Shown here piece after piece: positions 6,197-51,958 of a DNA stretch of 64,000 nt (the stretch's first letter is position 1; every line of letters starts with the position of its first letter). Under the pieces are notes generated by a model. The model did no database searches. It had not been told where the DNA came from and worked only from the letters and a program-made list of their open reading frames with translations. Position numbers and translations under genes: made by a program. The stretch is from NCBI GenBank assembly GCA_002189035.1, contig NEEC01000008.1, forward strand, positions 1,550,001 to 1,614,000, in the 5' to 3' direction. This DNA comes from Utricularia gibba (lineage: Eukaryota; Streptophyta; Magnoliopsida; Lamiales; Lentibulariaceae).

Positions 6197-6257
6197 TTCC
6201 TCTGCAAGACGAGCCACACACGATCCCTTCAAAGCTAGGTCTCAGAACATATCAGCA

Positions 6258-9301: not shown

Positions 9302-10506
9302 ATGGCGTCTGCGTGCGTGAACAGAATGGGAGTGCCGCCGGAGAGTTTTCTCGATTATGGCTCTGGGAAGTTCCAGCAGTGCGGTTGGTTGAGCCCCAGG
9401 ATGTCGTTCGGTCGGGAGGGTGGGGGTATGGAGCAGGGGAGTACTAACAAGCCTTCTTGGAAGAATCTGGTGGCGCCGGAGAATGAGGGCGCGTTGAGTG
9501 AGCAGAAACCAGATCCGGAAGTTTCAGGGGATGAGTTGGTGGATTTTGAGTTCCGTCTTGAAGATCCCATCAAAATGCTCCCTGCCGATGAACTCTTTTC
9601 CAACGGGAGGCTTCTTCCGTTGCATCTCGCGGCATTCAGGAATTCCGTTATGGCTGCTCCGGAGACGTCGTCATCGTTTGAAAATAGGTCGCCGGTGACC
9701 AAATGTTGCCCCTCAACGGATCCTTACTTGTTCTCCCCAAGGCACCAAGATGTGCTAGTCATTGGAAAGAGATTCTCGGCCTCAGAAAGCTGTATAAAAA
9801 CTCCAATCTCAAGCCGGTGGGGGATGAGAAAATAACGGCGGCCGCGGCTGCTTTGTCTTCTCACAAAACCGGAGCTAGGTGCCTAAAGCAGTTTCTCAAC
9901 CGGAGCTCCAAATCCTCACTTAACACGCCTACTGATTCATCCTTAAATCTTCCATTGCTGAAGGACTCTGACCAGGAATCTCTGACTATTTCCGCTCGCC
10001 TCTCCCTTTCCCTCTCCTCCAGCCATGACCACGATGAACTCCACTTTCACCGTTTCTCCGTAGATTCAGAAAAACCATGCGCCATCTCCCGAAAACCCCA
10101 CCAAACTACTCGCAATGCCACCAAAGTTCGAGTAGCAAAGACAGCAGTCCCTTCAAATCGGAACACAATGCTAAGAAATCCCGAATCCGCAGTGGCAATT
10201 CACAGTGTAGTTGTTGATAGCCCTCGAATGAATTCTTCAGGGAAGATAGTGTTCCACGGTTTGGAGCGAAGCTCGAGCAGCCCCAGCAGTTTCAATGGCG
10301 GACCAAGGTACAAACACCGCGGAATGGAGAGGTCCTATTCTGCTAATGTTCGAGTCACCCCTGTTCTAAACGTCCCCGTTTGCTCCTCCCTAAGAGGTTC
10401 CTCGAAATCTGGGGCCTTTGGCCTTCCCCTCTTCCAGAAGAAGGAAACTGGAAGCGGCACTGCTGGTAGAAACCGAGTTTCCATTCACATCAAGAACCGT
10501 AGTTGA
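9302..10506 (+). CDS. Conserved plant-specific protein of unknown function, frame broken once
   Basis: Intronless, about 401 residues if the frame were continuous. The start is ATG 9302 (MASACVNRMGVPPESFLDYG). The frame from 9302 carries FEFRLEDPIKMLPADELFSNGRLLPL and TDPYLFSP. The conserved continuation PKAPRCASHWKEILGLRKLY, DSSLNLPLLKDSDQE, VDSPRMNSSGKIVFHGLERSSSSPSSFNGG and MERSYSANVRVTPVLNVPVC lies in the next frame, ending at 10506. The switch is at the C-run 9735-9738. I recognise the motif order as a conserved, Ser-rich, intronless plant family without established biochemistry; the DELF..G.L.PL motif and the C-terminal block are its hallmarks. No transmembrane segment is visible. It is either a pseudogene with one lesion or, more likely, a normal gene with a consensus error. 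Confidence 0.75.
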
Positions 10507-11491
10507 ATTGAATAACCATTGGATTTTGACTGGTACTGCATCGTTTTCTACGTATTGTTGTTCAGGTTCTTGTTGCTTAGAAACAGATTCGTGGGGTTTA
10601 GTTAGATTTTCATTGAAGATCATCAAATTTTCTTTCCATGTAATTCAAGGAGGATAAAAACTGATGATGATCTTCAGTCTTCAGGCCTCTCTGCATCCTG
10701 TTTTAACTCTTTGTCCAACCTCTGCTGCTGGTTATCTTCAGTCACCTAACAAAGATACAATAAACAAATCCTGACCCTTAAAGATCAGGCCATTGGTGGG
10801 TCCTGGGATCAACCTCCCCATTTTCAAAGTAAACCTTGAAGAAAAAAAAAATCAACAACACGGCAAAAGGGAGGTTGTATGAACAGTTGATTTGCAAGAA
10901 AAAAAGAGTCTTTATAACAAAGGCTAAGCCTTTTTTGCCTCATATGTCTGTACGGTTTACATTTCAGCTTGAAATGCCTGTAGAATAAGCTGTGGGGCGA
11001 CTGGGAATCTCTGCTTTTGTGGTTGTAGTACTTAGAAAAGAAGAAACGTTGACGGTTGGTTCTGTGCTGTTCCTTTCTGTACAGAAAATGCCAACTCTGT
11101 CTGTGCCCTTGGCGATGCTTCGCCTTCTGTCGCTCGGAGCCACCGTCCTGTTGCTGTTCAGCAGCAACCTCAAACGCTTCTGTTCACTTTATGGCTCATC
11201 CATCTGCTGGTTTCTGTGTTTCTCCGTTCTCCGTCAAGAAAAGAAACGGAACAGCGTAACACAGGCATGAAGAATTAGTAGTGGACAACTCAAATCTCAA
11301 TCTCAGCCGTTGGTTTGCGCAGTATCATCCGACGGTTGGGACTGATTCAGGATATTTGTCTCGATTGTCCAGACGCTTCACGAGATTCCTCCGTTCCCCA
11401 CTTGGCCGTAACGTACCACGTGCGAAAAAGAGTTTATTGGAGAAAGTTGGGCCGGTGGTTATGATAAAGCCCGATTTGTTCAATATCGCGG
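10507..11491. other. Intergenic between the 9302 gene and METTL25
   Basis: Holds the 3' UTR of the upstream gene and the promoter/leader of the METTL25 homologue. ORFs here are short and carry no family signal. Confidence 0.5.
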
Positions 11492-14400
11492 ATGGGCCAA
11501 TTTCAGCCCGATCGGCGGTTTGAAGCGACCGTTGGCGACGTGCGAGGGAGTGTCTATGGAGGCCGGCGGAAGTACTCATGTAAAACGGCGAGTGAAACGC
11601 TTGAATGGATTGATGCGATCGTGAGGTTTCTCAAGTCTTACAGATTCTTCTTGGATGCTCACGTTGTTAATTTCTTCAAGGTAATTTGTCGCCGTTTCTG
11701 TTTAGAGTAGAGTACGTAGTTGAAGATCGTGGAAATTCGGTTTCATTTTACAGGATAGACTGTGGGAGGAGGTTGATGAAGAATGGATGGATTGTTTGCG
11801 GAGAGAGCCAATGGAGTCACTACTGCAAATTCCATCTGGAGTTGTTCAGGTGCTGTTTGTCTCAATGGCTAACGTTTGATTTGTTGTCGAGGAAGATGCA
11901 ATGTGTTATTCAAAACGGTTCCTGTATTTTTTATGCCAGGATCATTGGCCAGCTTCGCTTAAGAGATATGCCCACACGTTGGAATCGCTGTCATTTTCCA
12001 GATTCCAAGTTGATTTAGAGAAGGCATTTCTCACTTTAGCTACGGCGTAGATGATTTTAATCTTTCACCTTATTTTTTCAATGCTTCCTTCCTACTTTAT
12101 TTTCATGGGGATATTCAGCGTGCTGTCTTGAGATTATTTCTTCAGTGTGATAGAAAAGGGATAACTCGTAGTCGGAGAAGGACTGATGTTTTTAATTTTG
12201 TATCTTTTCTTGCTCATTACAGGTTTTTCAAGGCCTTAGGATAGAGAGCCTGAACAATGTCATATCCCAGGGAATGAATAGGAAGAAAAGACATGAAGTA
12301 TACATTTACTTCTACTTTTCCCTTTGTTTTTTGGTTACTATTCGTATCATTTAAAGCTATATTTTTATGAATGTACTTCTATATGTACCGATACATGAGT
12401 AAGGGGACTGCTTCTGAGTTCTTAGGTAGATGTATTCTTTTGTCATTACTTGCGTCTAAAAGTTCGCAGAGGTTTTTAGTTGATTTTGGAATCCATAAAA
12501 AACCAGACGGAAGAATCCTACTCAATTTTACATGTTTCTTGTAGTATGACATCCAATATTTTTAAGTAATAAATCATCAATATTTATATTATTTTAATTT
12601 GTCTCGATGTTTTTTTGAGCAGGTGGAATCCCTTGCTGGTGTAATTTCTTCCATTGCCCAGGAAGTTGGAGCCAAGACTATTGTGGATGTTGGCTCAGGT
12701 CAGGTGTGACTCCCTTAGTTTTTCACTGCCATCGATTGGAATCCATTTCTTTTCTGACAATTTAGATTTTTGTTGGTCTTATTGCAGGGCTATTTGGCAC
12801 AAGTCCTTTCATTTGAACATGATCTTTCTGTTGTGGCAATTGATGCTTCTTTTCATCATGGAACCATTACTACGTCACGTGCCCAGCGGATACTAAAGCA
12901 CTATGTTTCTAGGAAAAGAAAATTGGGGTACAATTATTAGGACCTTTCATTTAGTTCCCGAGATGCTGTTATCTTGTTGCACTTGCGGCTTTTCATGAGT
13001 GCCCTTTTCCACTAAATTTGTAAGGGTATTATAGTGATCTCCTTGCTGTAATTATATGTTTATGCAGAGCTGTAGTATTTGAGTCAAAGATTCTTTTGTA
13101 CTGGTTAGATTAATAGTGTACTCATTATCTATTACACTCATGTGCGATATGCGCTCACTCAACAGATTAGGGAACAAGTGTTTCAGCACTCCAAGAACTG
13201 TCACCTGCCAAGTGCTGTCAACGAACAGTTTGAAGGATGTATTAAACAACAGACTGCCAACTGATGGTTCTAATAAGTCAGTAATTCTGAGAGAAGACTG
13301 TGATATAGGATCTCCTCAAGAATTTGGATCTCCAATGAAAACCGGTGAAAAGCCCTTTTTGGTTCTCGCTGGGCTTCATGCATGTGGTGATCTTTCGGTA
13401 ACCATGCTCAGGTGAAAATCTTCTTGCAATATACCAATTGCATATTCGCTTGGTGTTTTCAGTACTTTGTTACTTGTTATCCCACCTTGTTTCTAATAGA
13501 GGACCTGATCAGCATTTCTATGTTTTTTTTGTTCACATGCCTCTGTATAGTTGGTCCCCTTGATAAGCTTTTGAGTTCCATTGAACTATGCTTCCTTTTT
13601 TATTCTTCTGAGTTTGGCGGTTGATGTTAATTCTTACATGTAGGACATTTGTCGAGTGTGAAAAAGTCAAAGCAGTAGTTAGCATTGGTTGTTGCTATAA
13701 CTTGTTATCTGAGGAGGGAGGCCCTAATGATGTTGAGAAACAATGTGGTTTTCCAGTGAGCACAGGTGCTATACCCATCTGTTCTAAGTTAGGTAAAAAT
13801 GCCCGAGATCTTGCTTGTCAGGTATTTTCTATGTTCCGCTGATGGTTTTTGGATTCTCTCTTTCCTTAGAGGCGCCAAAACCTGCATGTTTTGGCATCTT
13901 GTTACAATGCAGATGTGTGAGGGAAAACTGTGTGATCTTTATCTAGTTGATATAGACCTTTTAGGTTATCTCATGGTGATGCATGCAGTTGTAGTTCCTC
14001 CTCGCTGGTCCCTGGTGCACTTCTTTATCTCAAATTACAGATTGAAATTTGTTTACTTTGTCAGAGTGCAGAAAGATGGAGAATCTTGGGAGAAGCAGTG
14101 GGCCATTGCAATTTTCAACTTCACGCATTTCGTGCTGCATTTCAAATGGTTAGCTCTATCCATTATATTTTATTTACTCTCAGAAGAACTAACTGGTAAT
14201 ATCTCCAACTGAAGGTTCTCCTAAGGCATTACCCGGAAATCATTCAAAACATGCCTGCAATAGGGCGTCAAGGGAAGGCCTTGCGTCGCCATCATCAACA
14301 AAGCATGCTGGAGTGTAGCAGGCGTAATGCCGAATCTTCATTTATTGATTCAGAAGGTCAGAAGACTTGCTGCTTCTTACCTTTAATTATGCTGCTTTTT

Positions 14401-14964
14401 TCATGCCGAGACAAAAAGTTGAATCGAATACGAAAAATTGATTTAGAATAAGCAGCAAATGAACAAGATGAGTTTCAGTTCGATAACTATGAGTTTTCAT
14501 GCCATTCCATTGGTATCTCCTTGCAGGTTCTGTAGGTGATGCAAATCCCCTGACTAGCGAACCTCCGAATCTGTCTAAATCTGTTGATACATATTCCACT
14601 TTTGCTGACTTCTGCAAGTCAGGGCTCGCGAAGCTTAACCTCCATGAATCACATGTTGACTACTCTGGGATTTGGAAAGAAGCAGAAGAATATTCCGTAA
14701 GCGTTTTGTCGGTGTTTTGACTGTTGGTAAGCAGCATTGTATGTATTCTTCCAACATTGATTTGAGTTTTGTCTGCAGGATCTGATAGGACCTTACTGGA
14801 CACTTCGCGCTGCTCTCGGCCCTGTACTAGAAACACTTTTGCTGCTGGACAGATTACTGTTTCTCCAGGAGCAAGGGGCTGCTATCACGCACGCGGAATT
14901 GGTACCTTTATTTGATCCTGCATTATCCCCACGAAACATAGCTTTAATTGCTAAAAAGCAATGA
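11492..14964 (+). CDS. METTL25: Methyltransferase-like protein 25 (METTL25) homologue
   Basis: Predicted SAM-dependent methyltransferase of the METTL25/RRNAD1-like family, about 556 residues. Exons: 11492-11680, 11754-11849, 11940-12023, 12223-12297, 12623-12703, 12788-12927, 13166-13411, 13644-13821, 14065-14148, 14215-14356, 14527-14696, 14779-14964; phases agree throughout. SAM-binding motif I is KTIVDVGSGQGYLAQVLSFE, with VVAIDAS as the acidic strand 2 region. Further conserved blocks are FLVLAGLHACGDLSVTMLR, AVVSIGCCYNLLSEE (a CCYN motif typical of the family), the HAFRAAFQ region and a C-terminal LRAALGPVLETLLLLDR. Intron 3 has no usable GT donor: the fit is AAG|GC...AG. The N-terminus is uncertain: ATG 11492 is in frame, but an ATG at 11556 in another frame looks like the natural start. 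Substrate in plants is unknown to me. It lies tail-to-tail with PEX5. Confidence 0.88.
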
Positions 14965-15399
14965 CCTGTTCATTATTACGTTGTTTTTGCATTCTTTTGC
15001 ATTTCCATTAATCGAAGATTGCCCTGTTGTCACATTCATGATAGTGAATACTATTTTGCAACCACTTGAATACAATATATGAAAGACTACACGATGATGG
15101 TTGTCTCAAAAGCATGCACTGCAGAATTTTTTAAATCCCTTTCGACAATAAATGAGTCTTGTAAAGTCAAAAATCCTCTGAACAAATGCAGAATCATGAC
15201 CTGGCTCAGTGTACCTCCGGTTTATTTTTTTTCAAACTTACAGGAAGTGTCATGTGTCATGGTCTGCTTTCTTGTGTAGACGTGCAGCTTCATGCCCCAG
15301 GCTAATTCAGACATGAGGATATGAACTGCCCATTCGGTGCAGGATTCAAGGCTTCCCATTTTGGTCTAGGGACCTAAAATCGACTGGTGTCCCTGATCC
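14965..15399. other. Convergent intergenic space, METTL25/PEX5
   Basis: 435 bp between the two stop codons must hold both 3' UTRs. No other feature is seen; a short ORF at 15079-15279 has no family signal. Confidence 0.6.
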
Positions 15400-18300
15400 T
15401 CACAGAGGGAACTCTTTCTGTAGAATATCCACATTCCTCGCGTCGCACGCTTCGATCATATCGTTCCGTGATGCACAGCTAGGAGGATAAAGTGTTGCAT
15501 ATTAAGCACATGGATGATGATAGATGATGATGATGATCTTACCTCAGGGAGATTCTTAGATATTGCCAGGCGTTATCTGCCTTCGGATTCATTGCCAGTG
15601 CACGAACATAGTAACGAATCGAATCCTCGTACATGCCCTGACCATAAGGGCAACGCATCAGGAGCACAAACTAGAGAATTATGTAAGAAAGCAATAAAAG
15701 GGAGGCGAGTGACTTCTAGAGATCAAGAATCCAAAGGTCCAATCCATATATACATGTAATGTGTGTGTGGGATCATGTACTTGTTAGGATCTCCATATCA
15801 TCCAACTCTTGTTCATGATTTTTTACCTGATTGGCGTAGCTGATGCCCATGTTTGCCCATGCTCTCACGTAGTTGGGCTTCAAGTCTAAAGCCTAAAAAA
15901 CCAAGATGAATAAAAACATTGAACAGTCTCAGATTTCATCGGGCATTCATATAATTGTTTTGGAGGAGGGCAAGTTCATTTCTTCAACCTGTTGATACGC
16001 AAATATTGCATCGGCACTCTGCACGCTATTAGCTTGGGTTGCACCGAGCTTGTTCCAGAGAGAGTAGTCTTGGGGTTTCAGTTTCAAGGCTGTTTGGAAA
16101 GCGCCAATTGCTTTGTCATACTCCCTGGAGAGACTGTACAGCACCCCAAGCACTACATGCACGTCAGCATCACCCGGAGACAATTTAGCCGCATCCTTGA
16201 ACAAACCAGCCACCTATGCCAGTATAGAAACAGTCCCGTATGATTTTTTTTTTTTTTACTTAGTAAACAGCAGCTCATCATCAATATCAATGCACGGCAA
16301 AACGAATCACATACACATGAATTCAGCCCTGCAGTTGGAAAGGGACTTACATCAGCATGATAGAGATTCTCAGGCTGCTGAGGAGGGGGAATAGACCCAT
16401 ACTTGGGATGATGGCACAGCCAACTGTATAGGTACTTAAGTGCAGCTGCTTGTTCCGATTCTATGAAATTTAAGCGAAACTGGGTATCATTTCCCATTGA
16501 AAGGATATTGTTGTCATACGTATCGTGAAATGGGCCTTGACTAACCATTTGTGTAACTCACTCCAAGAGCAAGAAGAACTTCCAAGTTAGTCGGATCGGC
16601 TTCATGGGCCTTCATCATGGCAGCAATTGCCTGAGAAAGAAAAATCACCTGATAAGTTAAATACATTATACAACCATTGAAGTTGAAGTTTACAATAATT
16701 CAGGGTAATGGAGTCCAGCATAATGTTACTACGAATAATGTTATCACCTGATAAGTTACTACGAATAATGTTACTAGAATGCAATACAGAAATGTAATTC
16801 TAGTCAGTGAAAAAACTTCCAGGATTAGAGATATAGAACGTGTTTCAACCTGTTGATCATCATCGTTCTCAGCATGCGCTATACCAAGTAACCTCCACCC
16901 CTCAGCATTGTCAGGGTTCTTGAGAACCTCAGCTTCAAGAGCAAGAACTGCTTCACTTAATAGTCCTTTGCGGAAAAGTTCTTGCCCTTCCATCAAAGGA
17001 TTTGGATGTCCAACGTATGGATTTAAATCAGAGAAAACATATACACCCCTTGATGCTTCCGAATTCCTCTTCATTGCAGCCATCTCATGTAAGTACCTGA
17101 AGACCAGGATTCAAAGACTTAAACATGCATCAAGTGGAACACGAATGAATGGTTAAAGAAACAAATTGTTTCATTACAGGTTTCCTGCCACATGATCATG
17201 ATTATTATACACAAACTAGACAGTGCAGACTATTGTTTACGTAATTGCTATTTGTCAATTCCCATGCTCATTCAATAATGAAATGACATGTTTTCTCCTA
17301 CCGCCATTCCTGGTTAAGAAAAATAAACTCTTAACTCTCTTGTGCCTTGTACGTGACACACACACTGAACCTGGACGTGGAAACTAATACTACATAATCA
17401 CAACTAGTCATGTGGTCCGTTTCTAGGTTATTTGTGAACTTACTCGTCATATCCATTTGCCCAATTCTCCGTGGAGGAATCACCCAAAGTTCCATTAGCA
17501 ATCTGATGCTGAAATTCTTCAGACCAATCATCGACATTTAAGTTGGAAAATTCCTTAACCCAGTCATCCTCTAACTGGCCATGCCCTCCGTGCTCAGTGG
17601 CAAATTCACTGGCCCAATCCTGGGGCCTATGATGGAGCTGAAAGTAGTACTGTCTTAGAGAAAGAGCACTTGAAAACATGAATTCGTTTTAGCTTAATCT
17701 AATAGGAAAAAATATGCTGTTAGTTAAAAATAAAATACATGGATAAGAATTTTTGGCTATGAACGATGAACTGAAGGAAAAATTAACTTGTTGTATATTT
17801 TGTTACCAAATGCGAACTCGCTTGCTCTGAAGCAAATTGATCAGCCCATGAATGACCACCACTATAATGCTTCTCATACTCATCTGCCCAGTTCCCAGGT
17901 CCAGACACTGCACCTTGCTTAAGCTGATTATCCTCAACAGTGATTTCACCCCGGCTCATCTTTGATACAAACTGTAGGAACTTTGAATTCTATTTGCAAA
18001 GACAGATATATAAGCGTGTTTTCAAAAGAATGAACTAATGAATAAAATATGCTAATTGATTACATATGTTCTTCCCAGACAAGAACAGACCAAATGAAGA
18101 GCTTTATGTGGTGGAAGGATAATATGCACTGGCTATATGACTCGGAAATATATATTCAAGGATAATTATCAATGAAGAAATTATGGAATTGAAGCTTACC
18201 TGAAACTTGGGATCACTATTTTGAGCTAATGTCTGAGCTAGGACACGAGAGTGCTCTACCACATTTGGCTGGGCTAAATTTGAAATTCCCATTCTTTGAA

Positions 18301-33417: not shown

Positions 33418-35687
33418 ATGCCCTCAGTAAAAATGGGAAGAAATTCAACTTCTGGCTGCACAAAGGAAAAACGTGGCCTCCAAGTATGTCAAAAATCAAT
33501 TTTGATATCCAAGAATGTTCCACATAATGCCAGGGTATATCAAATGGTGGAAGAAATTTTCAATAGTAACCCCTGTAATAAGGATGGTATGCTCTGCTTA
33601 ACCTTAGATCAGATTCCTCAAAGTGTGTTTTTCTTCCACCCTCAGCTCATCTTCATCTTCAGGTAAAGCAAATTCTGTACACTTGGAGGAAAGTTGGAGC
33701 ATAACTGACCATGATGTAGTATCTCGTGAGGAAGTTTCCTTAGAGCAACTCTATACTTTGACAGACACCGTAGCTGACAATTTGGTATGCCATTACAAGT
33801 GCCCTCTGTGATCTCCTTACCATTCGTGACCAGTCTTTTTTTGTTTGATTATTTTTCCATGTGAAGCCAATCATGTTGTTATGACTTGTTTTTGTTATTT
33901 GTAGCTTTTAATACATTGAGGGAGTTTTTTCTCACAAAAGAAATTTGTCTGTGTTCTCTTATTTGGTACTTCTATCATAATTTGCAGGAACCTGCATCTT
34001 CTACGTGCTCATCAGACATTGGGACAATTTTTTCTCCTGTTCTGGAATCAGTTGATTTCTTGCGGAATGCAGGTACGCACTATCTGATTTTCTTCTAATT
34101 TATCTGGTAAATATATATTCAAACCATCTGAATTGCAAATTGAATTGGTTTTTAGTCTATTTGTTCTTTTTCTTTTAATCTCCATTGCTTATCGTCTTGC
34201 AAGAAAAGCGCATGTAATCACTATTCCCATGCTTTTATTTGAAGGATTGTGCGTCTGGATCCTCCAAATGATTTTCCATTAAGCTATGCTCCTCTTGATA
34301 CAGGAAATGATGTGATGTATGCGGCAGAGTCGGAAACAGAGGAAAGTCAAGATAGTGCCCGAAGTTCCTGTGAAATGCAAGCATTCAGTGTATCAGATTT
34401 CTGTATCTCTGACGTAACATTTTCTGGGCCACTTTCACTATCCGATCATCACACGGATGCTGCATTCCAATCTGACTATGATTGTGAAGAGTCTAGCTTA
34501 ATTTGTGCCTTGAAGCAGGATTACATGGTATTGCCATTTCTGGAAGACGTGTTAGATCCTGAAAGTGATTCTGCTGCCAGACAATCGGGAGCAACCTTTA
34601 TAGATGCTGAGAACTCCAGCTTATTCCTGGAAAATCAAATAGGACCATACAATCAGGATTCGAATGTAAATGTTTACCACAACCTTGATCATGATTTGTT
34701 TGATACACAAATGTATATAAAGATGCAGCCTGACCAGCATGATTTGACAAGCACCATGTTGCCCAATCCTGCGCTGAATGAAAAGCTGGATGTCAAAAGG
34801 ATAACTTTAGTACTTGATTTAGATGGTAAGCATCTTGTGCTTGTATTCCTGTCCACTGTGTTTACTGTCTTTTCCTTGATCACTATCTATACATTGATTT
34901 TAGCTTCTTTAGACTGCCGTCAAGCAGTTTTCGATGCTAGCAGTATGTGCTGTCCCATCGCTGTGTTTTTTTAGAAGTTTGGCCTTGTCATTGATGTGTG
35001 ATGGTTTACAGTATTTTCAAGACACTTGTAATTTTGATACGTTCTTGACTGTATGACTAGCATCTCTTTACCGGTGTTTTTCGTGTTGATGTCTGCAGAA
35101 ACTCTTGTGCACTCTACCTTGGACACTGGTACTGATGCTGACTTCAAGTTTACAGTGTTCTTCAACGAGAAGGAACATGTGGTTTATGTGAAACAACGAC
35201 CACATCTCCAAACCTTTCTCAAAAGAGTGTCTGAGATGTTCGAAATTGTGGTGTTCACGGCTAGTCAGAGCATCTACGCTAAACAAATTCTTGATGCATT
35301 GGATCCAGATGGCATGATTATCTCAAGACGTGCTTATCGAGACTCGTGTATCTTTTCTGAAGGCACCTACATGAAAGACCTGACCATATTCGGTGTGGAC
35401 TTGGCCAAAGTTGCCATAGTTGATAATTCTCCACAGGTATCTTTCTTTCTTACTAGAAACAACAAGGCCTCAGGGTTCCGTTTTCCTCTGTCACTCAGTT
35501 CCACGCATTATTCTTTTGATTTCAGGTTTTCAGACTGCAAGTCAACAATGGCATTCCTATTAAGAGCTGGTTCGACGACCCATCGGACTGCGCCCTGATT
35601 TCACTGCTGCCTTTCTTGGAGTCCTTGGTCAATGCCGATGATGTACGGCCCCTCATTGCCAAGAAATTTGGTAACAATGAGCAATAA
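33418..35687 (+). CDS. SSP4: SCP1-like small CTD phosphatase (SSP4-type)
   Basis: HAD-family Ser phosphatase of the FCP1/SCP1 class, whose plant members act on the RNA polymerase II C-terminal domain in the nucleus. 465 residues, close to Arabidopsis SSP4. Exons: 33418-33586, 33663-33784, 33988-34072, 34304-34825, 35099-35436, 35526-35687; phases agree. The long acidic N-terminal extension (SSTCSSDIGTIFSPVLES, CISDVTFSGPLSL, YMVLPFLEDVLDPESD) is typical of the SSP4 subgroup. The catalytic NIF domain starts at ITLVLDLDETLVHSTL (DxDxT; the first Asp is the phospho-acceptor). It continues with VYVKQRPHLQTFLKRVSEMF, EIVVFTASQSIYAKQ, KVAIVDNSPQVF and SWFDDPSDCALISLLPFLE. Intron 4 cuts the catalytic motif between DLD and ETL. 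ATG 33418 fits the family start. Confidence 0.92.
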
Positions 35688-36725
35688 GCCTGCTCCTTGT
35701 ACCCTCTAGTCAACACTCTCCATTCCTCCTCCTCCGCTTTATGTGCTTGCAAATTCTTCTTGATATGCTTCTTCTTCTTCTACTCCCTCCTCCCTCCCTG
35801 ATGAGTCAACCCAACACCCTCCTATTGTCTCATTCTCGAGAGTATTCCCATTTTAGGCTATTAACAGGTGCTTGTCCCCACGAGGTAAATTTTGTTTGCT
35901 TTATAACGTTATAGTTTTACCAGGACCCTCTCTGTGTGTCTGTACATAAGTTGGTGATCGATGTATGGAGAAGAACCATTGATTTGATAAATTCCATATT
36001 AGTTTTAAATACTCCTTATTTTCATGGGCCTGGACTTTTTCTGGGCCTAGCGTCAGACCCGTCTGCCCAGGCCTGTGCTCACCCAACATTAGTCCTTTCA
36101 AGGCAACGTATAGTAAGCCCAATCATGTTATAACTCATGTTCTTTTTATACAATATCATTGGTTTCAAATATTTAATTTTTATGATTTTATGTTTTATTT
36201 TTTTGAATAAAATTTTGTTATGATTCCTCTATTTAAATTTGTTTTTTTATGCATTCTTAACTAATGTGATATATTGTCAACAATTACTTGATATTACGCA
36301 ATCTGGGCTTATGTCATTCCATCAGCAAATTTCAGATATAAATTTTGTAGAATTTTAAAAGAAGCTGCTGTTCCTTGGATTATGAGGATTAAGAATGTGT
36401 TTTTCCTAAATGTATTTATTTATTTCATTATGGAGTTTAAAATGATGTAAAAAGGGATGACCAGTTCTCCAAATATAGCCTAGTGGGTCGTCTCGCTTTC
36501 GCCCCATGAAAAAAAAAGAGGGAGGCGAAGATCCAAGTAGGCCGGCCACCCTCGTGATCGTGAAGTGTGGATTCCGAAGAACGAGGGAGAAGCGGAGCTT
36601 TTCTTTATAACCGCTGTAAACCTCTTGGCTTTTTTTCGCGTATTTCGAAGAAAATGTATCCATTCTAGTCTACACTCCCAGCAGTGTTTGGTACCTCCCG
36701 CCCTACGTGACACGCACAATCCTCT
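35688..36725. other. Intergenic, SSP4 to GIP1-like
   Basis: 3' UTR of SSP4, then AT-rich DNA (36130-36430) and the presumed promoter of the GIP1-like gene. A (CTT)n/CCTCC-rich pyrimidine tract lies at about 35755-35800. Confidence 0.5.
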
Positions 36726-38200
36726 ATGGGTGCTGCAAGGGGTAGCGCTTCCGGAGATACCGAAGGCGCGCAGTTCATTCCCTCAATGGCGCGGGAGATA
36801 GTGCGGAGTTTGAAGGAGATAGTGAACTGCCCCGATACAGAGATCTATGCCGTTCTTAAAGATTGCAATTTGGACCCCGACGAGGCGGTTCATCGCCCCC
36901 TATCCCAAGGTTATTGCTTTCCTAGAAAAAAAATGCGAAGGGGCTGGTTAAGCATCCTCTTTAATCAATTCCTTACTAGATATATTATGATCATGACCGG
37001 AGATATTTCTCTAGTGGCGTGTATTTTCATAATGTTCTGGGGATTCCTGTGGCCGATCCTCTACTAGGATAGTGGACGAGTGGACATATGCCGAGAGTTT
37101 TTGACTCTTTGTATTACTGATCCGTTATTCAATTCTCCTAGATCCTTTCCACGAGGTGAAGAGTAAAGAGGTATATATCGTGTAGTAGTTTAGCTTCACA
37201 GAATGCCCTCAAAATTATTTATCCTGTTAAGTGATATTTGAAGCTCTCGTATTAATTAGTGAAGTCTGGGGGACTATACTGTTTTACTTGGGCGATCTGA
37301 ACTTTAAGCAACTGCCTAGTAAGCACTTCGTGATGCAGGTTAGAGATAATACGGAATCCAAGCCTCTTTCTTTTTCCCGAACGTCATTAAACAAGAAGGA
37401 AAACGGATCATCTCATGCAAGTCATTTGTCCTCAGTGTATGGTGTACGGCATGGCAGAACCTGTGGACCGGTTGGTTCGAGGTGTGCCCTTTTTAGTATG
37501 TTAAAATTTCATTAGTATTTTAGAAATCAATGAATAAAGCAACCCTGGTACATTGCCTTCGAAAGAGGAACTGGTCTGTAATAAAGAGTTCCTCTCACTT
37601 GATTTCACAATGGGTTGATGAAATGGTGGTTATCCTCAGTACAAGAACGCTGTTTCTTCCAGTACTTTGCACCAATCTGCTGCGGGTTCCCCTGGATATG
37701 GTGGCTTCGAAACAGCACACCACTTCCTTTTCCAATGAACCCAACTTCTGCGCCTTCAAATTTGAACATGGATGAAGCTGTACTCTCGCTGCTGCAGGTA
37801 TGGTGCTCTTTTTTAGGGAGTTCTGCAAACATAACAATTACAAACATTCTTTCCTTGTCATATTCAGGATGAGAACCAGGAGTTCTGGCTCCATAGGCAT
37901 AATTCAAGAACAATGCCAACAGCTCCATCACATCCATATTACAATTACCAGGCAGATCAACAACCCTGGGGAATCAGGCAAACCCAGCGGCAGCCAACCC
38001 AGATCTATGGGGGTATAGGGCTAGGTTACCCCAATCACTACATCTCTCAAGCGGCTTTGTCACCTGAGCAACTCTATCAGAATGCAAGAGACATGGCTCT
38101 TGGTGACACAGAAATCAAAAGAGTTTGGCTGAGGAATGAGGACAGACGAGTGTTAGAAGATCAATGGGTTTATTTGACACAGATCACAGATGTGTTTTGA
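36726..38200 (+). CDS. Short GIP1-like (DUF1296) gene, frameshifted or pseudogene
   Basis: Resembles GBF-interacting protein 1-like plant proteins, which carry an N-terminal UBA-like DUF1296 domain. Exons: 36726-36909, 37142-37170, 37339-37481, 37663-37797, 37868-38200. Exon 1 has the domain (MAREIVRSLKEIVNCPDTEIYAVLKDCNLDPDEAVHRPLSQ). The 29-nt exon 2 adds DPFHEVKSKE, and exon 3 gives RDNTESKPLSFSRTS. Exon 4 begins STLHQSAAGSPGYGGFE, then the frame must shift once near 37705-37715 to reach STPLPFPMNPTSAPSNLNMDEAVLSLLQ. Exon 5 is QPWGIRQTQRQP and ending LSPEQLYQNARDMALGD plus about 25 extra residues. Total is about 274 residues against roughly 800 in full-size family members as I recall them, so the middle is absent, yet all splice phases fit. 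Confidence 0.68.
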
Positions 38201-38338
38201 CACATTTGTTCCAAAATCGTGGCCAATCCCAAACCACTTGGCAATGTCTGATTGGCCCAAGGAAACACGCTGTCACACTCTCTCTGGCATGAAGAAATCC
38301 AAATACGATCGTTTATGGCTTTCATTTTGAATCGGCAG

Positions 38339-38402
38339 CCAATGAGGGTGGAGATATAGATCTTCCAAGGATAAGGTTGCTGGTTCTGAAGTCTCTATAA
38401 AG
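38339..38402 (+). promoter_or_regulatory. LHCB1 promoter elements
   Basis: CCAAT lies at 38339-38343, GATA cores at 38353-38356 and in the I-box-like GATAAG at 38370-38375, and a TATA box (CTATAAA) at 38395-38401, about 80 bp before the ATG. CCAAT-GATA-TATA is the known layout of light- and clock-regulated CAB promoters. Confidence 0.7.
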
Positions 38403-38482
38403 ACCTCTATGGTCAGTCTCCTATCCTCACTCACCCACTGCAGCAGCAGCCAGTAGCATCTTCTCTTCACAACTATTCTGCA

Positions 38483-39274
38483 ATGGCGGCCGCATCAACA
38501 ATGGCTCTATCCTCCCCCTCCTTCGCCGGCCAGGCAGTTAAGTTGTCCCCGGAGTTCAGCGCCCCGGGAAGGATCTCGATGAGGAAGGCTGCCACCAAGT
38601 CTGCTCCTTCCGGCAGCCCCTGGTACGGGCCAGACCGTGTTAAGTACTTGGGTCCCTTCTCCGGGGAAGCCCCAAGCTACCTCAACGGAGAATTCCCCGG
38701 TGACTACGGATGGGACACCGCTGGACTGTCCGCCGACCCCGAGACGTTCGCCAAAAACCGTGAATTGGAAGTGATCCACGCCAGATGGGCCATGCTTGGT
38801 GCTCTCGGAATCGTCTTTCCCGAGCTCTTGGCAAAGAACGGTGTTAAATTCGGCGAGGCTGTCTGGTTCAAGGCCGGTTCACAGATCTTCAGCGAGGGTG
38901 GCCTCGACTACTTGGGTAACCCAAGCTTGATCCACGCTCAGAGCATCTTGGCCATCTGGGCTACACAAGTTATTCTCATGGGTGCTGTGGAGGGGTACCG
39001 TGTTGCCGGAGGGCCACTTGGGGAAGTCGTTGACCCGCTCTACCCTGGAGGCAGCTTCGACCCATTGGGTCTGGCTGATGATCCGGAAGCATTCGCTGAA
39101 CTGAAGGTGAAGGAGATCAAGAACGGCAGACTTGCAATGTTCTCCGTGTTCGGTTTCTTCGTCCAGGCCATTGTCACCGGAAAAGGCCCATTGGAGAACC
39201 TCTCCGACCACCTTGCTGACCCCGTAAACAACAATGCCTGGGCCTACGCCACCAACTTCGTCCCTGGGAAATGA
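38483..39274 (+). CDS. LHCB1: LHCII chlorophyll a/b-binding protein, type 1
   Basis: Thylakoid antenna protein of photosystem II, 263 residues, intronless as is typical for LHCB1. The plastid transit peptide is about residues 1-35 ([20 protein letters not shown]). The mature part has [15 protein letters not shown] (the trimerisation motif region), then helix B with [16 protein letters not shown] (chlorophyll-ligating Glu/His and Arg), helix C and [25 protein letters not shown] for helix A. It ends with [18 protein letters not shown]. The ARWAMLG and GRLAM repeats are the generic LHC motif. Codon use is GC-richer than the neighbours, as expected for a highly expressed gene. Within the family LHCB1 fits better than LHCB2 or LHCB3, judged from the N-terminus. 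Confidence 0.96.
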
Positions 39275-40408: not shown

Positions 40409-40666
40409 ATGGAGAGTGTGGCTAAGAGATCGAGTACCTTCAGTTTTCTCTTGCATATGCTGAACAGAAAGGGAATCAGCAGCACCGGCGGTGGAGGAGG
40501 AGCGCAGCGATGGAGGCTCAGCAGATCCCTGGCGCTGCGGTGGAAGTGGAGGTTCAATTTCCACTCGTTCGATGGCTTGATTTTTAAGATCGTATCGGTT
40601 CTCGAAGCCGTCGTTCTCGTATCCGGTCTCTGCTTCTTCTTCCTCTGCTGCGGATGCCGATTGTGA
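40409..40666 (+). CDS. Small single-pass membrane protein, Cys-rich C-terminus
   Basis: An 85-residue intronless ORF from ATG 40409. The N-terminal half is basic (RWRLSRSLALRWKWRFNFHSF). A C-terminal hydrophobic segment (IVSVLEAVVLVSGLCFFF) is followed by the tail LCCGCRL. The pattern of a basic amphipathic stretch, FDxLIFKIV, then EAVVLVSxLCFFxLCCGC matches a small uncharacterised plant family that I recognise by its C-terminus but cannot name. Topology and the possible lipidation of the CCxC tail are inferences. Confidence 0.7.
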   Translation: MESVAKRSSTFSFLLHMLNRKGISSTGGGGGAQRWRLSRSLALRWKWRFNFHSFDGLIFKIVSVLEAVVLVSGLCFFFLCCGCRL

Positions 40667-41421: not shown

Positions 41422-43532
41422 TCATGGCTGGAATGCAGAAAACACAACCACAGAGTTGTGGCCGCCGAATCCGAACGAGTTTGAAATAGCTGGATGATAA
41501 CATTTGCGATGAACATCAGAACAACATCATGTATAGTTATGATTATGGCAAACCTCAACTCAAACAAGAGAAGCAGAGATGTATTGGGCGCCTTACCAAC
41601 GTTAATTTCATGTTGCTGTTTTTGATTCGCGACGACGTCGAAATCGACGGAAGGCTCTGGATTCTGCAGTGCAAAGTGAATGATGTTCAAGTTCAGATAT
41701 GGATGGAAAACAGGGCTTACATGTTTGCTGGATCTAGCAAGCTCATGTAGTAGTAGTATACTTACAAACTGGTTGATCGTGGATGAAGCCAGCCGGTAGT
41801 GATTGCTTTTATTGTTGCAATAGCTTCTAGACCACCAGCTGCACCCAGGCAATGGCCTATCATTGACTGGAACCACATGAGAAAAGTTAGTTGCTTTTTA
41901 TGAAAACATGGTTGACGATCGACAGCAGAAGGGTTACCTTGGTTGCATTGATTTTTATCCCTGAGGTGTCCTTGAACACCTTCTTAATCGCATTTATCTC
42001 AGCCAAATCTCCCACCAGAGTAGAAGTTGCATGGGCATTAATGTAGTTTACCTGAAGATAAAAAGGAGTCAAGAACTATAGGGATGCATCAGCTACAATG
42101 ATCTAAGAAGAATCGATGCGAACCTCTTCAGAGGAAACACCAGCATCTTCAAGGGCACTCTGGATGCATGAAGATACACCAAGTCCATCGGCTCTGGGGT
42201 CAGTCATGTGGTATGCATCACAGTTAACTGAGCCTCCCAAATATTCTGCAATTATAGGTGCACCACGCTTCATGGCATGCTCTAGACTTTCCATAACCTG
42301 TACAAATAAAAAAAAAGACACATTACATGGCATGTTCCAGACTTTCCCAGATAGAAGTTGGAGCAGAAAACCATACAAACCAGTATTCCGGCACCTTCAC
42401 CCATAACAAAGCCATCTCGATCTTTGTCCCAAGGTCTGGATGCTGTTTTAGGGTCATCATTTCTCTGGGACAGTGCTCTGCATGCAACAAAACCTCCCAA
42501 TCCAATAGGGATGATGGCAGCTTCAGACCCACCAGCGATCATTATATCAGCTTCACCTCGCCGAATGTGATTTGCAGCAGCATAAAAGCAGTAGTTGGAT
42601 GTTGCACAAGCAGTTGAAATGGAATAATTTGGTCCCATTAATCCAAGATCAATAGCAAGCAAAGCAGACCCCATATTTGTTATGGCGTAAGGTATGAAAA
42701 AAGGAGTAATTTTCCTGTGACCCTTCTCCACTAGAGCATGAACAGCATCAGAAAACACAGTAAGACCTCCCATTCCTGTACCAACTAGAACCCCAGCTCG
42801 AACCTTATCAATCTGAAAAACTCAAAAGAAAAATCCCAATTCATTGCTACACGAGCAAATAAAGCTCATAATTCTCTTAAGGAGATGGTAAAGGAATTCA
42901 AAGACCAAAAACCTAGAAAATACATCACGGTCACTGCATGAAACAATAAATGTCGAATTGAAACAAGTCATCAAGCATCTCAAGATTGCAACAGAAACCC
43001 AGTGTTTAATAAAGAGATGACTGAAAAATGAGGGAAAACTGAAAGGAGCAGTGATACGGGCTCTTACACTTTCAAGCTTTTCTTGTCCAAGATCGGCATC
43101 TTCAAGCGCCTTTTTACCAGCAACAATGCTGTACCTCAAACAATCATCCAACCTCCGATCGTTCTTCCCATCAATATAACCCCCCGATTCAAACCCACGA
43201 ATTTGGCCGGCAAATCGTGTTGGAAACTTGGACGCATCGAACCGGTCTATCAAGGTGATGCCACTCTCACCAGAGAGCAGCTTCTCGTAGTAAGCGTCCA
43301 CATCATTACCAAACACCGATACCAAGCCCATCCCCGTAATGACTACGCGCTTCTTAGGGTCCGTCTCCCGCTTCGGCGCCGAAACAGTCTGCACAGAGGC
43401 AGAGATTTTGGAAGGGAGCCTTTTAACCGGAAGTCCGGCATTTTTGCCAAAAAAGCTCCCCGTGAGCGACGGTCTGCGAAGGCACTCCATGGGGGACAGG
43501 CGGAGGGAGCCGTATTGCAGCACGGCGTCCAT
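41422..43532 (-). CDS. KASI: Plastid 3-oxoacyl-ACP synthase I (KAS I), frame broken once
   Basis: Condensing enzyme that elongates C4 to C16 acyl-ACP in plastid fatty-acid synthesis. Exons: 43532-43068, 42812-42381, 42297-42124, 42051-41938, 41866-41766, 41663-41597, 41489-41422. Length is 473 residues if the frame were continuous, the usual KAS I size. The transit peptide is about residues 1-50. The core begins DPKKRVVITGMGLVSVFGNDV. The catalytic triad is visible: Cys in STACATSNYCFY, His in INAHATST and His in SMIGHCLGAAGG; FGFGGHNS closes the fold. Exon 5 is 101 nt where 102 are needed. A base is missing near 41780, so WLHP is followed by the wrong frame, although exons 6 and 7 (NPEPSVDFDVVA, AISNSFGFGGHNS) keep the proper phases. 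The start is ATG 43532 (MDAVLQYGSL), since the upstream open frame has no ATG. Confidence 0.92.
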
Positions 43533-45724: not shown

Positions 45725-46829
<1,105 letters not shown>

Positions 46830-48702
46830 TTAGGGTTCACACTAATAATCCTGATTAGTACGCTAATTATAGACCACGAATGCAATGTTGCGCGGCTAAA
46901 AATAGTACTGTGTTAAACCGACTTCCATTTCGAGCTGGAACAAGGAAGTAACACAATTATGACAATTATTATTATTCTAATAATATTTCTAATTATATAA
47001 TTATTTATTAAAATATGATTAACTATTTAAGGACAAATAATTAAAATAATTATTCATTAAATTATCATATCAAACTCATATTTAAAATTTTTGGGTTAAT
47101 AAATTAAATATATTATTATATTAAAAAAGAAAAAAAAGAAGAATTGACGGAAGACGGTTGGCAATGTCTTTAAGATATGAATTCATACTAAAAAAAAATT
47201 TTAAAAAATATATAATTTTTCATTTTATGATAAATTTAAATTCTGTTAAAATTAATTTTGAAGTGATTTTCACAAACGTAGCTTTATTATAAACTGACTT
47301 CTAATTAAATTGGCAAAAAAGAAAAATCCCTCTCTTTTGTAGTATTTTTATTTAAAAAAGAAATAATAAAAATGACGATTTTTTAATTAAATTATTTGAA
47401 ATAATGGAGATGTGAATTATTGATCCAATTTCCGGAGTTGCCAGTTGGGGATTTGATTGGGCTCTCCTTTCACTAGAAAAAGGTTGGAATTGAGGGCCTC
47501 AAAATGCCACCACATGCAATAAACAAATCAATGCCGAAATTATTGAGACCCTTTTAAGTCAAAACGATAAATCATTTTAATCAATTTTTATTATTTCCAG
47601 AATGAGAATTGAGAAGGATGCGTGCGCCTTAGCGACGACGTTTTGACGTCCGGAAGCGGGCCCCATTTTACGGAGCCGTGATATTTTTAGGTGGGGCCAA
47701 TTCATGGATATTATTTCTCTATTTGATTACAATTTGACAGAATAAATTAGTTATATTATTGGAAATTTATTTAAAATGTAATTTTGGAAATATTGTAATT
47801 GGAAATTTCCTTGGATTCCCGCCTCTTGGCGGTGGCGGCACTCCAGTTTCCTTAAGCTGTTTTATGGTGTTCGCTTTTAGTTGGGGATGCAGTCGTGTAT
47901 CAGCGCCTTTTTCGCGCCCTGTCTAACCCGATCGGAAGGTGCGGTGAGTCCCTTGGCATATCTGTGATTCTAATTCTAAGGTGTTGATGGAGGAGACGGA
48001 AATTGATGTTACTTGTCGGAGTAAGAGTTGCGCTACCGATAAGCGAGGGATTTTTCGATTCATATGCTTTCTGTCGATGCTTTTTCCCCCAATTTCGTTT
48101 AGGTTTTCCATTACAAGTATTTTGTTTCCCCCTTAGTTGTATGTTTGGGGTTCTATCACCTTTCGTTTTGTAGGCTGTTTTCTGTTCGTTTTTTCTTTAT
48201 CTGCTCGTGTTTTTTTTAATTGGGTGGAATCCGCCTTTTTCCCCCTTTAGTAATGATGGCAGGAGGGACCTAGTCAATGATGATTCGGATAAACACGCCT
48301 CATCAACAAAATCAGACGGATTGAAGAGCATCAGTGGACTCAATAATGAGGAGGGAGCTTCTCGTCGCACTGGAATGGGTTCTTTCTTGGTGTGCATCAC
48401 AGGTACCAGCATCTGTTCTAGTTCAAGTAATACTTTGCACCGCGTAATTGCTTTCACCGTTTTTAAACATCATGGTGCTAGTTCCCCGCCCACAGATCTA
48501 CGCCTGATGCCTATTGATCCAGGTGTTGTACAGCTGCCTACATCAAAAGTTGCCTGCAAAATAAGTTGAACTTGCACACAGCTTTCCATCCTCAGTAGAT
48601 GTAGGGTGGAAATCAAAAGGGGTGTTTGACTGCAAAAAAAGCTACTAGTGGAGGTGCCCCAAAGAACGAGAAACTGGGCATCCTGTAGTTGCTCCTCTGT
48701 GG
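46830..48702. other. Intergenic region with an unassigned ORF
   Basis: 46900-47600 is AT-rich. 47850-48180 is leader-like. A 19-codon ORF at 47887 (MQSCISAFFAPCLTRSEGA) ends at a strong donor GCG|GTGAGT. A second open stretch, about 48250-48569, follows a pyrimidine-rich acceptor (CCCCCTTTAG), but its phase does not match the first. This may be a small plus-strand gene or noncoding transcript; I recognise no family. Confidence 0.35.
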
Positions 48703-51700
48703 CTAAGAATGCAACAACTCCTGGTCTCGTAATGTTGATGGAGGGGGAGGCAGCACCTTCTTGGCGAAGGCGAATGCATTAGGTAGACCTGATACCATCG
48801 GCGTGGTAACAATTGGTGCATCCAACACTGAATCCGGTATTGCAACAAGGGTTTCCTCCAAAAATGAATCAACCGTCTGCAAGTTCAAAAACCAAGTCAT
48901 TCTAGGATTTGTAAGACTTGAGCACGAGAGGAGAAAGAGACAATTTAAAATCTGGAAAAAAAGCCTCCTATTGTGTTCAGAGACTGCATCGGATACATGT
49001 CCCTATATTTCAACAGCTTCAAAATTGAACCCATACATGGTGTAATAAATATTAAGCATCAACTTGCGTCCCTTCAAGCAGTTTGTTGAAGAGAACAGAA
49101 GGTCAAAGAAGCTTGAAAATAGTTAACAACAATATAGAAGGCAACGGTTTTGATTTGATACTATTCAAACACAGCTAATAGGAATTCGTCCTTGCCTAGA
49201 AGCAGTTTGAAAATGTGCATAAACTCTGCAGCAGAAATGTTTTGATGACTCACCGAGCATCTAAGGAAAGCAGCATCAGCTTTTCGTTTCCAAAGGCCAT
49301 TCCCAGGCTCCGAGTGGAAAAAACCAAGCAGAGGCTGGATGAGCACGTAGAAGTAGAGAAATGAGGATTATATGGCTATGCAATTCAAAACAGGTGCGTG
49401 TCATCTGTTCTTTGGATAAGGAAACCATACCTTCATCAATTCACGAACGTTTGGTTCACAGCCATACATTCCCACGACTGAATTAGCATATGCTTTGTAT
49501 TTTTCAAGGACCTACATGGAAGAAAGAGTACTTGGATTCAACCAACTAAGAAAATGCCCCAGCATGAGAAGGATAATATCGCATGTCACTAGAACAACCT
49601 GCCTGCGGGTCAGTGTGCTTGGTGGCGCTCCATATATTGCACTGTCAACGTGAGCTAAAAGATTCCATGAACTGAAAATGTCACAAATTTTCAGGAAATC
49701 TTAAACGGATCAAAGTACAGGTACCAGAGAACCACTTTTGAAAACCATGATAGGGAAGTGAAAATACAGGGCACACACTTGTTGTAAGCTGCACGCCCAA
49801 CCATGACTCCGTGAGCCCCCTCGTTTAAGGCTGAAACAACCTAGAAGTAAAAAGGTCAAAAAAGAATCAGCATATCTCGTGGATTTTCCTGGTAAATGAG
49901 GCAATATATGGTCATTTGGATAAATGATCTGGAAATTCAGAATAAAAGGGGTAGTGAAAACCAGAACCACCAAATGCTGTATTTACAAAAAGTCGCTAGG
50001 TGCAAACCCTCATTTATGCAAAATATGATCCCTGGACCTCTATCATGAATTTCACAACGTTGAATATCGAGCACTGTATAAAAACCACAATACACACCTC
50101 ATCAATCAAGTTTAATCCACCATTAAGTGTAAATTTTAAATGGGGAAATCACGAACAAGAGCATAGTAGTACTCATATCTGCAAAAGTAACAAAACCATA
50201 AAATTGTGATACCGAAATACAAGTTTATAGTGTCTAAGGACATAGATAAAGAACAAAAAAAGGTGCTGATGATAGTAATGCAAGAAAATTTGCATTGATA
50301 AATAATGAAGTGACCAAAATACTACAATGAATGTGTGTGTACTTTAAAGGCGGAATTGATCTATTTTGTCTGGGAGTGAGCCGTTTCAGTAATCCCTTTC
50401 GTGAGTGTATTATGAAATGCTTTGTTGGTGACCGAGATGACACTTTATATATAAAATCACCTACATGAAAAAGAAAATACATTGTGAATATTCTCTCTTG
50501 CGAATATTGGATTCCTCATAGTAAAAATACATACTAAAATCATGCTACATGCATAACCATCAAAACGAGCGAACAAACATATATGATTAACATGCGTTAG
50601 GCGTCAGATTTTATGAAGCTCTAAAGGTAGAAAGAAACTGCCAAAGAAAAATCATTTTCCATACGCGCATAGAAGATAATTTCCAGCATTTATTGGCATC
50701 ATGACACTCACACAGCTGATCATATGAATCATGGCTATCAACTCCAATTCGGCATTTGACGCTTACAGGAACATTTGAGTTTGCAGAAATTACAGACATG
50801 GCATCAGCAACAAACTTCCCTTGTTTAAAGCCAAAACAACCAAATAAGAGCTCTTTCTTAAGGGAGTGTACTATAAAACTAGTCAAGACCTATTTCAAAA
50901 CCTCAGGATCAAGCATAAGCTGGAGTCCAAAACACCCTTTTCCAGCAACCTTTGGACTTGGACATCCGCAACTGTTTAATTGAAGTGTCTTATAATATAA
51001 ATGAGAAAAGCTGCTACAGAATCAAAGGATGGATCAGAGTAAGAAAAAAACTTGAAATTGATCTCATCATATCCATAGGAGCTTGCAAGTTGAGTTGCTT
51101 TAGCAATGTTTTGCAAATCACTTCCACCAATCTGAAGAACTATGGGATGTTGATCTTGACCGAAAGCCAAAAACTTGTCCTAAAAAATGTGAAGAAAGCA
51201 ATCATAGTCAAGAAATATTGTCAGGAGTAAAGATACCGAATGGGGGTCAATGCTGTTCATGTCACCATAATGCAGAAACTGGAAAGATTTTAACATTGAT
51301 TCAAGCATGGGTGCAGCAGATAAATTCCTCAAAACACCAGAAAATCATCCTACATTCGTTCCTTTATGGGCGAGCATCAAGTATGCCAAGAACTTTCAAT
51401 TCAATCCATTGGCACAAAAGACCAGATCGCATTAACAGACATAAGGTTAAGAAACTCTCTGCAGTGGAATAGCAAAAAATTCCAAATGTATGATTCTAAC
51501 ATCCCTCGTGGATTTAATTTACCAAGCCAATGACTTCCCATTCCAAGTTTATCAGTCAAAAAATACCAACTCAGTATGTATACAAGAAATGATTCGAATA
51601 TACAATAATGAAAGTATGCGCAACAGAAACCAATACAAAAACATATATAAAAAAACCCACTCTCGAAACATACCAAATTGTCCTTCTGATGTACAATGGT

Positions 51701-51958
51701 TTCAGCAGCAAGCATTTCTGTATACAGCCAAACATGCCTTGATATCAAACGAGCCAAAGTCCTGAAGTGATTATTTGTGCATTCCATCATTGGAGCAATA
51801 CTGCATTTCAAACACAGAGAACAATGCATGTCAACAAATCAACTAGCATGCTTTTATGGGCGACCAAATGCTTAGAAATCAGAAGTGAGATCTACCTAAA
51901 CAATGGGGTGGATAGCGATTGGCAACCATCATAGAATGTTTATTGAGCTGGAAAATGC
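48703..51958 (-). CDS. DUS: tRNA-dihydrouridine synthase (DusA-like), two frame breaks
   Basis: FMN-dependent TIM-barrel enzyme reducing uridine to dihydrouridine in tRNA. Exons: 51958-51896, 51800-51674, 51179-51052, 50971-50902, 50814-50712, 50460-50343, 50178-50098, 49840-49779, 49671-49599, 49511-49431, 49334-49254, 48876-48703; about 380 residues. Motifs: LFSIAPMMECTNNHFRTLARLI, HPIVLQIGGSDLQNIAKAT, NCGCPSPKVAGKGCFG with the active-site Cys, VSVKCRIGVDSHDSYDQL, KHFIIHSRKGLL, EGAHGVMVGRAAYN and FFHSEPGNGLWKRKADAAF. Two exons are one base short: in 51958-51896 at the G-run 51905-51908 (plus strand), and in 50178-50098 at 50142-50145 (DFP then HLKFTLNGG). An in-frame ATG pair lies at 51932/51929, but coding could extend upstream. 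An ORF at 52545-52808 is a candidate first exon without a clear join. Mitochondrial, plastid or cytosolic location is not readable. Confidence 0.85.

What the first reader, a model, noticed from the sequence alone, without database searches (positions are those of the whole stretch)
9302..51958. Same-direction one-base losses in at least six conserved exons across the window
Apparent -1 shifts occur in the 9302 protein, the GIP1-like gene, KAS I, the GA 2-oxidase and two DUS exons. Four are C/G runs of 4-5 bases. No +1 shift was found. In the multi-exon genes the flanking intron phases require exactly one more base. Several of these genes are probably essential or are single pathway steps, so parallel pseudogenisation is unlikely. 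Systematic homopolymer under-calling in a long-read consensus is the simplest explanation.
Basis: partly seen in the sequence, partly recalled or inferred. Interest (0 to 1): 0.75.

Follow-up and report, generated by a model that had tools for sequence, protein, structure and literature searches.

The report
Assembly drops bases in C/G runs
The "broken" plant genes in this window are mostly intact genes with one base missing from the assembled sequence in short runs of C or G; the same error recurs across the whole assembly, even in tRNA genes, so it warns about sequence quality and is not a biological discovery.

Summary
Four of the six reported one-base losses are confirmed against intact copies or homologues: 9735-9738, 41781-41782 (KAS I), 46323-46327 (GA 2-oxidase) and 50142-50145 (DUS). 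The GIP1-like gene is a true decayed duplicate that lost about 2.1 kb of exons, so it is no evidence for miscalling. The 51905 site needs one more base (or two fewer), but cannot be placed because its exon is not conserved.

The under-calling interpretation holds beyond the window. In the homeologous block on contig C3 and in GRAS, KCS and LHCB families, 27 frame breaks were read (including the four in the window). All are -1, all lie in or beside C/G runs, and none is +1. Three of six near-identical tandem LHCB genes are "broken", each in a C run. Four of 27 tRNA-Ala/Asp genes also lack one base at a C run, which translational recoding cannot explain. Selection is equally strong before and after the breaks.

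The GA 2-oxidase break is shared by both homeologues, but a miscall at a C6 run is still far likelier than conserved frameshifting. Verdict: known artefact class, low biological interest. Reads were not available; one read-mapping test would close the case.

The parts
9302..10506 (+). Single-exon gene of unknown family with one -1 break at the C run 9735-9738; open on both sides in different frames
   Evidence: Alignment to the intact C3 homeologue; dN/dS 0.285 before and 0.318 after the break; no Pfam match
9735..9738 (+). CCCC, one base short of frame (most likely C5)
   Evidence: C3 has CCCCTAAA in frame
36723..38113 (+). Remnant of a GIP1-like gene: genuine pseudogene that lost about 2.1 kb of exons; its -1 at 37705-37715 is not evidence of miscalling
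   Evidence: C3 35748-37983 (about 2.2 kb) faces 37493-37635 (about 140 bp) in the window; further indels
41600..43532 (-). 3-oxoacyl-ACP synthase I (KAS I) gene, intact but for one -1 break
   Evidence: Pfam ketoacyl-synt 2.2e-37 and 1.3e-13, PDB KAS II matches to 2.6e-48, dN/dS 0.09 before and 0.02 after the break
41781..41782 (-). CC on the coding strand where C3 has CCC (CATCC-ACG versus CATCCCAC)
45725..46828 (+). Gibberellin 2-oxidase gene, three exons, one -1 break in exon 2 shared with its C3 homeologue
   Evidence: Pfam DIOX_N and 2OG-FeII_Oxy; rice GA2ox3 6ku3 1.9e-19 for the frame after the break; dN/dS 0.168/0.175
46323..46327 (+). C5 run (NHYP|PW site), one base short of frame in both homeologues (expected C6)
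48780..51930 (-). tRNA-dihydrouridine synthase (DUS) gene, multi-exon; recognisable exons open apart from the break at 50142-50145
   Evidence: Pfam Dus 5.1e-07 and 2.2e-04; exon-by-exon comparison with C414:3.29 Mb
50142..50145 (-). CCCC on the coding strand, one base short of frame; paralogue reads DFPDLQF in frame
51905..51908 (-). Proposed sixth site in the first DUS exon: phase mismatch, position not established
   Evidence: First exon not conserved with the paralogue
38483..39274 (+). Intact LHCB gene, template for ten paralogues of which four have a one-base C-run loss
40409..40663 (+). Small open gene intact here while the C3 homeologue lacks one base at a G4 run, so the error also hits the other subgenome

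Best explanation
The breaks are consensus base-calling errors: single bases deleted in, or at the edge of, short C or G runs. They occur throughout this assembly (about 3% of runs of four in the LHCB genes, apparently more in longer runs). KAS I, GA 2-oxidase, DUS and the 9302 gene are therefore very likely intact in the plant. Shown: direction, base context, presence in coding and tRNA genes, presence in near-identical tandem copies, equal purifying selection on both sides. Inferred: that accurate reads would restore the bases, and that a long-read platform with too little polishing produced them.
For: Twenty-seven protein-coding breaks read at base level are all -1 and all in or beside C/G runs: 4 in the window and 3 in C3 homeologues, 16 in GRAS/KCS, 4 in LHCB. 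In 20 intact GRAS/KCS domains A/T runs of 3 or more outnumber C/G runs 594 to 395. Two apparent +1 cases proved to be a double -1 (L047) and an intron (L048). Three of six tandem LHCB genes on C3 each lack one C in a C4-C5 run that their neighbours keep. Two of 17 tRNA-Ala and 2 of 10 tRNA-Asp genes lack one base, three inside a C run of the T arm and one just before a CCC run, with no insertions. dN/dS is low and alike before and after the breaks. Contig C316 repeats 4 kb of C412 with 1 mismatch but 11 losses; two are at C runs (C4 to C3, C5 to C4) and fit the shorter open frame of its GRAS gene. Published nanopore error profile: C and G homopolymers are sequenced worse than A and T, and deletions predominate with length (PMC8486125).
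Against: No reads or transcripts could be examined. The GA 2-oxidase break is shared by two copies 81% alike, which a single ancestral deletion would explain more simply if taken alone. A C6 run elsewhere in the same exon (near 46460) is called in frame in both copies, so under-calling is not universal. The plastid rbcL and mitochondrial cox1 genes showed no break. In tRNA-Asp L098 and perhaps DUS 50142 the lost base is next to the run, not in it. The C316/C412 comparison could be two real haplotypes, since another part of C316 is clearly diverged.
Confidence: 0.94

Rival explanations
1. Real one-base deletions: the genes are young pseudogenes, lost after the genome duplication that produced the C3 block.
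For: Real decay exists in both subgenomes: the GIP1-like gene here lost about 2.1 kb of exons and the C3 CTD-phosphatase copy has a 4-bp deletion.
Against: Genuine decay gives mixed lesions, as in GIP1. The other genes have one lesion each, always -1, always at C/G, with unchanged purifying selection downstream and intact other exons. It would have to hit half of a tandem LHCB array and otherwise near-perfect tRNAs in the same way.
Confidence: 0.04
2. Programmed -1 ribosomal frameshifting at C/G runs rescues the genes; the shared GA 2-oxidase site is its best example (a P-site CCC could re-pair one base back and read Y-P-P-W).
For: The GA 2-oxidase break is at the same place in both homeologues and the downstream frame is conserved.
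Against: By reading the frames, no canonical X XXY YYZ heptamer lies at 9735, 41781 or 46323. Sites include GG to G and CCC to CC. tRNA genes, which are not translated, show the same loss. Intact sister genes carry the longer run. A different GA2ox paralogue needs no shift.
Confidence: 0.01
3. Insertional mRNA editing (added C or G) restores the frames.
For: None beyond the pattern of single missing C/G.
Against: No such nuclear system is known in plants (own knowledge); it does not explain why near-identical neighbours carry the base in DNA.
Confidence: 0.003

Closest known systems
Homopolymer deletion errors of long-read consensus (nanopore profile in PMC8486125; effect on predicted proteins: Watson and Warr 2019, cited in PMC7501810)
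   Same: One-base losses, deletion-biased, worse for C and G than A and T, rising with run length, frameshifting predicted proteins
   Different: Some losses here are in runs as short as 2-3 and some sit at the run edge; the platform used for this assembly is unknown
Fractionation after whole-genome duplication
   Same: Duplicated collinear blocks with some copies decayed (GIP1-like here, CTD phosphatase on C3)
   Different: The four confirmed breaks are single, same-direction, C/G-only lesions in genes under purifying selection
Programmed -1 ribosomal frameshifting
   Same: A -1 offset with conserved sequence on both sides
   Different: No slippery heptamer at the sites read; same losses in non-translated genes

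Membership tests
Consensus homopolymer under-calling | Errors in one direction (loss) | tested here: met
   27 of 27 coding breaks and 4 of 4 tRNA length changes are losses
Consensus homopolymer under-calling | Concentrated at homopolymers of particular bases | tested here: met
   All at or beside C/G runs; A/T runs commoner in intact GRAS/KCS domains (594 versus 395 runs of 3 or more) but never hit
Consensus homopolymer under-calling | Rate rises with run length | tested here: inconclusive
   LHCB set: 3 of 94 runs of 4 and 1 of 8 runs of 5 lost; small numbers
Consensus homopolymer under-calling | Independent of coding status | tested here: met
   tRNA-Ala and tRNA-Asp genes affected
Consensus homopolymer under-calling | Absent from accurate reads | not testable with these tools
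   No reads or transcripts held
Pseudogene | Relaxed selection after inactivation | tested here: not met
   dN/dS after the break 0.02, 0.175, 0.32, like before the break; GIP1-like gene excepted
Pseudogene | Several lesions of mixed kinds | tested here: not met
   Single lesion in KAS I, GA2ox, the 9302 gene; met only by the GIP1-like gene
Programmed -1 frameshifting | Canonical slippery heptamer in the zero frame | tested here: not met
   Codons read at 9735, 41781 and 46323 do not fit X XXY YYZ (sequence)
Programmed -1 frameshifting | Confined to translated sequence | tested here: not met
   tRNA genes show the same loss
Programmed -1 frameshifting | Stimulatory RNA structure downstream | not tested
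   Not folded; other tests already fail

The most novel reading that the evidence does not exclude
The GA 2-oxidase break, identical in two homeologues 81% alike with conserved sequence on both sides, is a real conserved -1 recoding site on a C run that regulates gibberellin breakdown, against a background of ordinary miscalls elsewhere.
Probability: 0.015. Interest if true: 0.85.

Novelty: not a real feature. Interest (0 to 1): 0.12.

Why it matters
Gene models, pseudogene counts, duplicate-loss estimates and tRNA annotation drawn from this assembly will be wrong in a predictable way: intact genes split or dropped where a C/G run falls in an exon, the more so the longer the run. Half of one tandem LHCB array looks dead for this reason alone. 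Polishing with accurate reads, or frameshift-tolerant annotation, should come before biological claims.

Tried and rejected
Parallel pseudogenisation: rejected for four genes by dN/dS and single lesions, accepted for the GIP1-like gene. A +1 class: apparent +1/-2 offsets in the GRAS and KCS tables were real introns (L048, L062), a double -1 (L047) or decayed copies (L057, L059, L063); L050, which looked like -1, is also an intron. Genome-wide run-length spectrum: C/G runs of 7 or more are somewhat fewer than a Markov model predicts (2 runs of 7 and 3 of 12 or more, against about 8), but the model is fitted on the same data, so it says little. UDPGT and kinesin scans were not informative because matches are short or broken by introns. 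The larger C316/C412 comparison was spoiled by repeats and divergence. Pfam gave no name for the 9302 gene.

Full report
WHAT WAS CHECKED. The window is G000:C414:1550001-1614000 of a 100.1 Mb plant assembly in 516 contigs. Searching it against its own genome found a collinear duplicate block on contig C3 at roughly 3.46-3.52 Mb, matching the window from about 9 to 48 kb in order, with 66-91% DNA identity per segment. It served as a reference from the same plant.

THE SIX SITES. At 9735-9738 the window reads TCTCCCC-AAG where the C3 copy reads TCTCCCCTAAA in frame. In KAS I at 41781-41782 the coding strand reads CATCC-ACG where C3 has CATCCCAC; it is the only frame break seen in the coding exons. 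In the GA 2-oxidase at 46323-46327 the C run is one base short of frame, and the C3 homeologue is short at the same place; the more distant paralogue L020 is in frame there. In DUS at 50142-50145 the paralogue at C414:3.29 Mb reads RDFPDLQFT in one frame while the window changes frame after RDFP. The GIP1-like gene also has a -1, but about 2.1 kb of its exons is gone: it is a real pseudogene. The 51905 site lies in a first exon that is not conserved with the paralogue, so a loss there cannot be placed.

SELECTION. Between window and C3 copies dN/dS is 0.090 before and 0.021 after the break in KAS I, 0.168 and 0.175 in the GA 2-oxidase, and 0.285 and 0.318 in the 9302 gene. The sequence after each break has been kept as protein. 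The post-break frame of the GA 2-oxidase matches rice GA2ox3 (6ku3, 1.9e-19).

THE REST OF THE ASSEMBLY. GRAS and KCS domains are mostly uninterrupted by introns, so frame changes stand out in a six-frame profile search. I fetched 20 break regions of either sign. Sixteen one-base losses were read by eye from the translations (L044, L045, L046, two in L047, L049, two in L051, L052, L053, L054, L055, L056, L058, L060, L061), all at C or G runs; the rest were introns or decayed copies. In L046, L056 and L058 the exact lost base is uncertain, and where the missing codon position is a wobble base the lost base need not equal the run base. The C3 block adds three: GA 2-oxidase, a small gene and the GIP1 homologue. 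With the four in the window that makes 23. Eleven LHCB genes give four more, for 27: L005 AGCCCCTGG to AGCCCTGG, L009 TGTCCCCGG to TGTCCCGG, L010 GCCCCCAG to GCCCCAG, L013 TTCCCCGG to TTCCCGG. L005, L009 and L010 are three of the six tandem genes on C3. All 27 are losses; with equal odds of gain and loss that has a chance of about 7e-9 (my arithmetic). In 20 intact GRAS/KCS domains there are 395 C/G and 594 A/T runs of three or more, so sixteen of sixteen at C/G has a chance near 4e-7 (my arithmetic; itself printed the figure for fifteen). In the LHCB genes C/G runs are themselves commoner (342 against 113), so that set carries little weight for base preference, only for direction. About 3 of 94 true runs of four and 1 of 8 of five were lost there.

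NON-CODING GENES. A tRNA-Ala query found 17 genes; two are one base short, each in the C run of the T arm. A tRNA-Asp query found 10 close copies; two are one base short, one in the same C run and one just before a CCC run. No copy examined has an extra base. tRNAs are not translated, so ribosomal frameshifting cannot be the cause, and these copies are otherwise perfect or nearly so.

A NEAR-REPLICATE. Contig C316 (38 kb) repeats 4 kb of C412 around one GRAS gene with a single mismatch but eleven gaps, all losses in C316. Two are C4 to C3 and C5 to C4, consistent with the shorter open frame of that copy. Elsewhere the two contigs differ more, so they may be haplotypes; I treat this as supporting only.

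ALTERNATIVES. Pseudogenisation fits the GIP1-like gene but not the others. Programmed frameshifting fails on the missing heptamers and on the tRNAs. The shared GA 2-oxidase break is the one fact that a miscall does not explain at once. It falls on a long C run (C6 expected); in the two DELLA-like genes L044 and L045, and in L052 and L055, the same Pro-Pro codons are likewise short in two paralogues, so recurrence at conserved C-rich codons is a general feature of this error. A second C6 run in the same GA 2-oxidase exon is called in frame in both copies, so the error is probabilistic. Organellar genes tested (plastid rbcL on C516, mitochondrial cox1 on C515) were unbroken, which would fit a coverage-dependent error but rests on two genes.

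KNOWN CONTEXT. A nanopore error study reports that C and G homopolymers are sequenced significantly worse than A and T, and that deletions predominate as runs lengthen (PMC8486125). A plant-genomics review notes that such residual errors affect protein prediction, citing Watson and Warr 2019 (PMC7501810). The platform behind this assembly is not known to me.

VERDICT. This is a known class of artefact, useful as a quality warning.

Noticed in passing
G000:C3:3490272-3502554 versus window 38483-39274: One LHCB gene in the window faces a tandem array of six on the homeologous block, a copy-number difference between subgenomes.
   Followed up: partly
window 36723-38113: GIP1-like gene is a genuine decayed homeologue lacking about 2.1 kb of exons; the C3 copy keeps them but itself shows a one-base loss at a G4 run.
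   Followed up: yes
G000:C3 about 3479900 versus window 35080-35690: The C3 copy of a CTD-phosphatase-like gene has a 4-bp deletion; the window copy is open, so loss went the other way.
   Followed up: partly
G000:C515:183547-185854: Apparent mitochondrial contig; cox1 is split by about 965 bp, the size of the mobile group I intron known in some flowering plants (own knowledge).
   Followed up: no
G000:C316 and C412:853000-857000: Small contig repeating part of C412 with 1 mismatch but 11 losses in 4 kb, more diverged elsewhere: a possible uncollapsed haplotype.
   Followed up: partly
window 5792-6241: Ribosomal protein eL27 (Ribosomal_L27e) open frame, 91% identical at DNA level to its C3 homologue.
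   Followed up: no
G000:C413:4947230-4997561: Cluster of at least seven KCS (FAE1-type) genes, some fragmentary.
   Followed up: no
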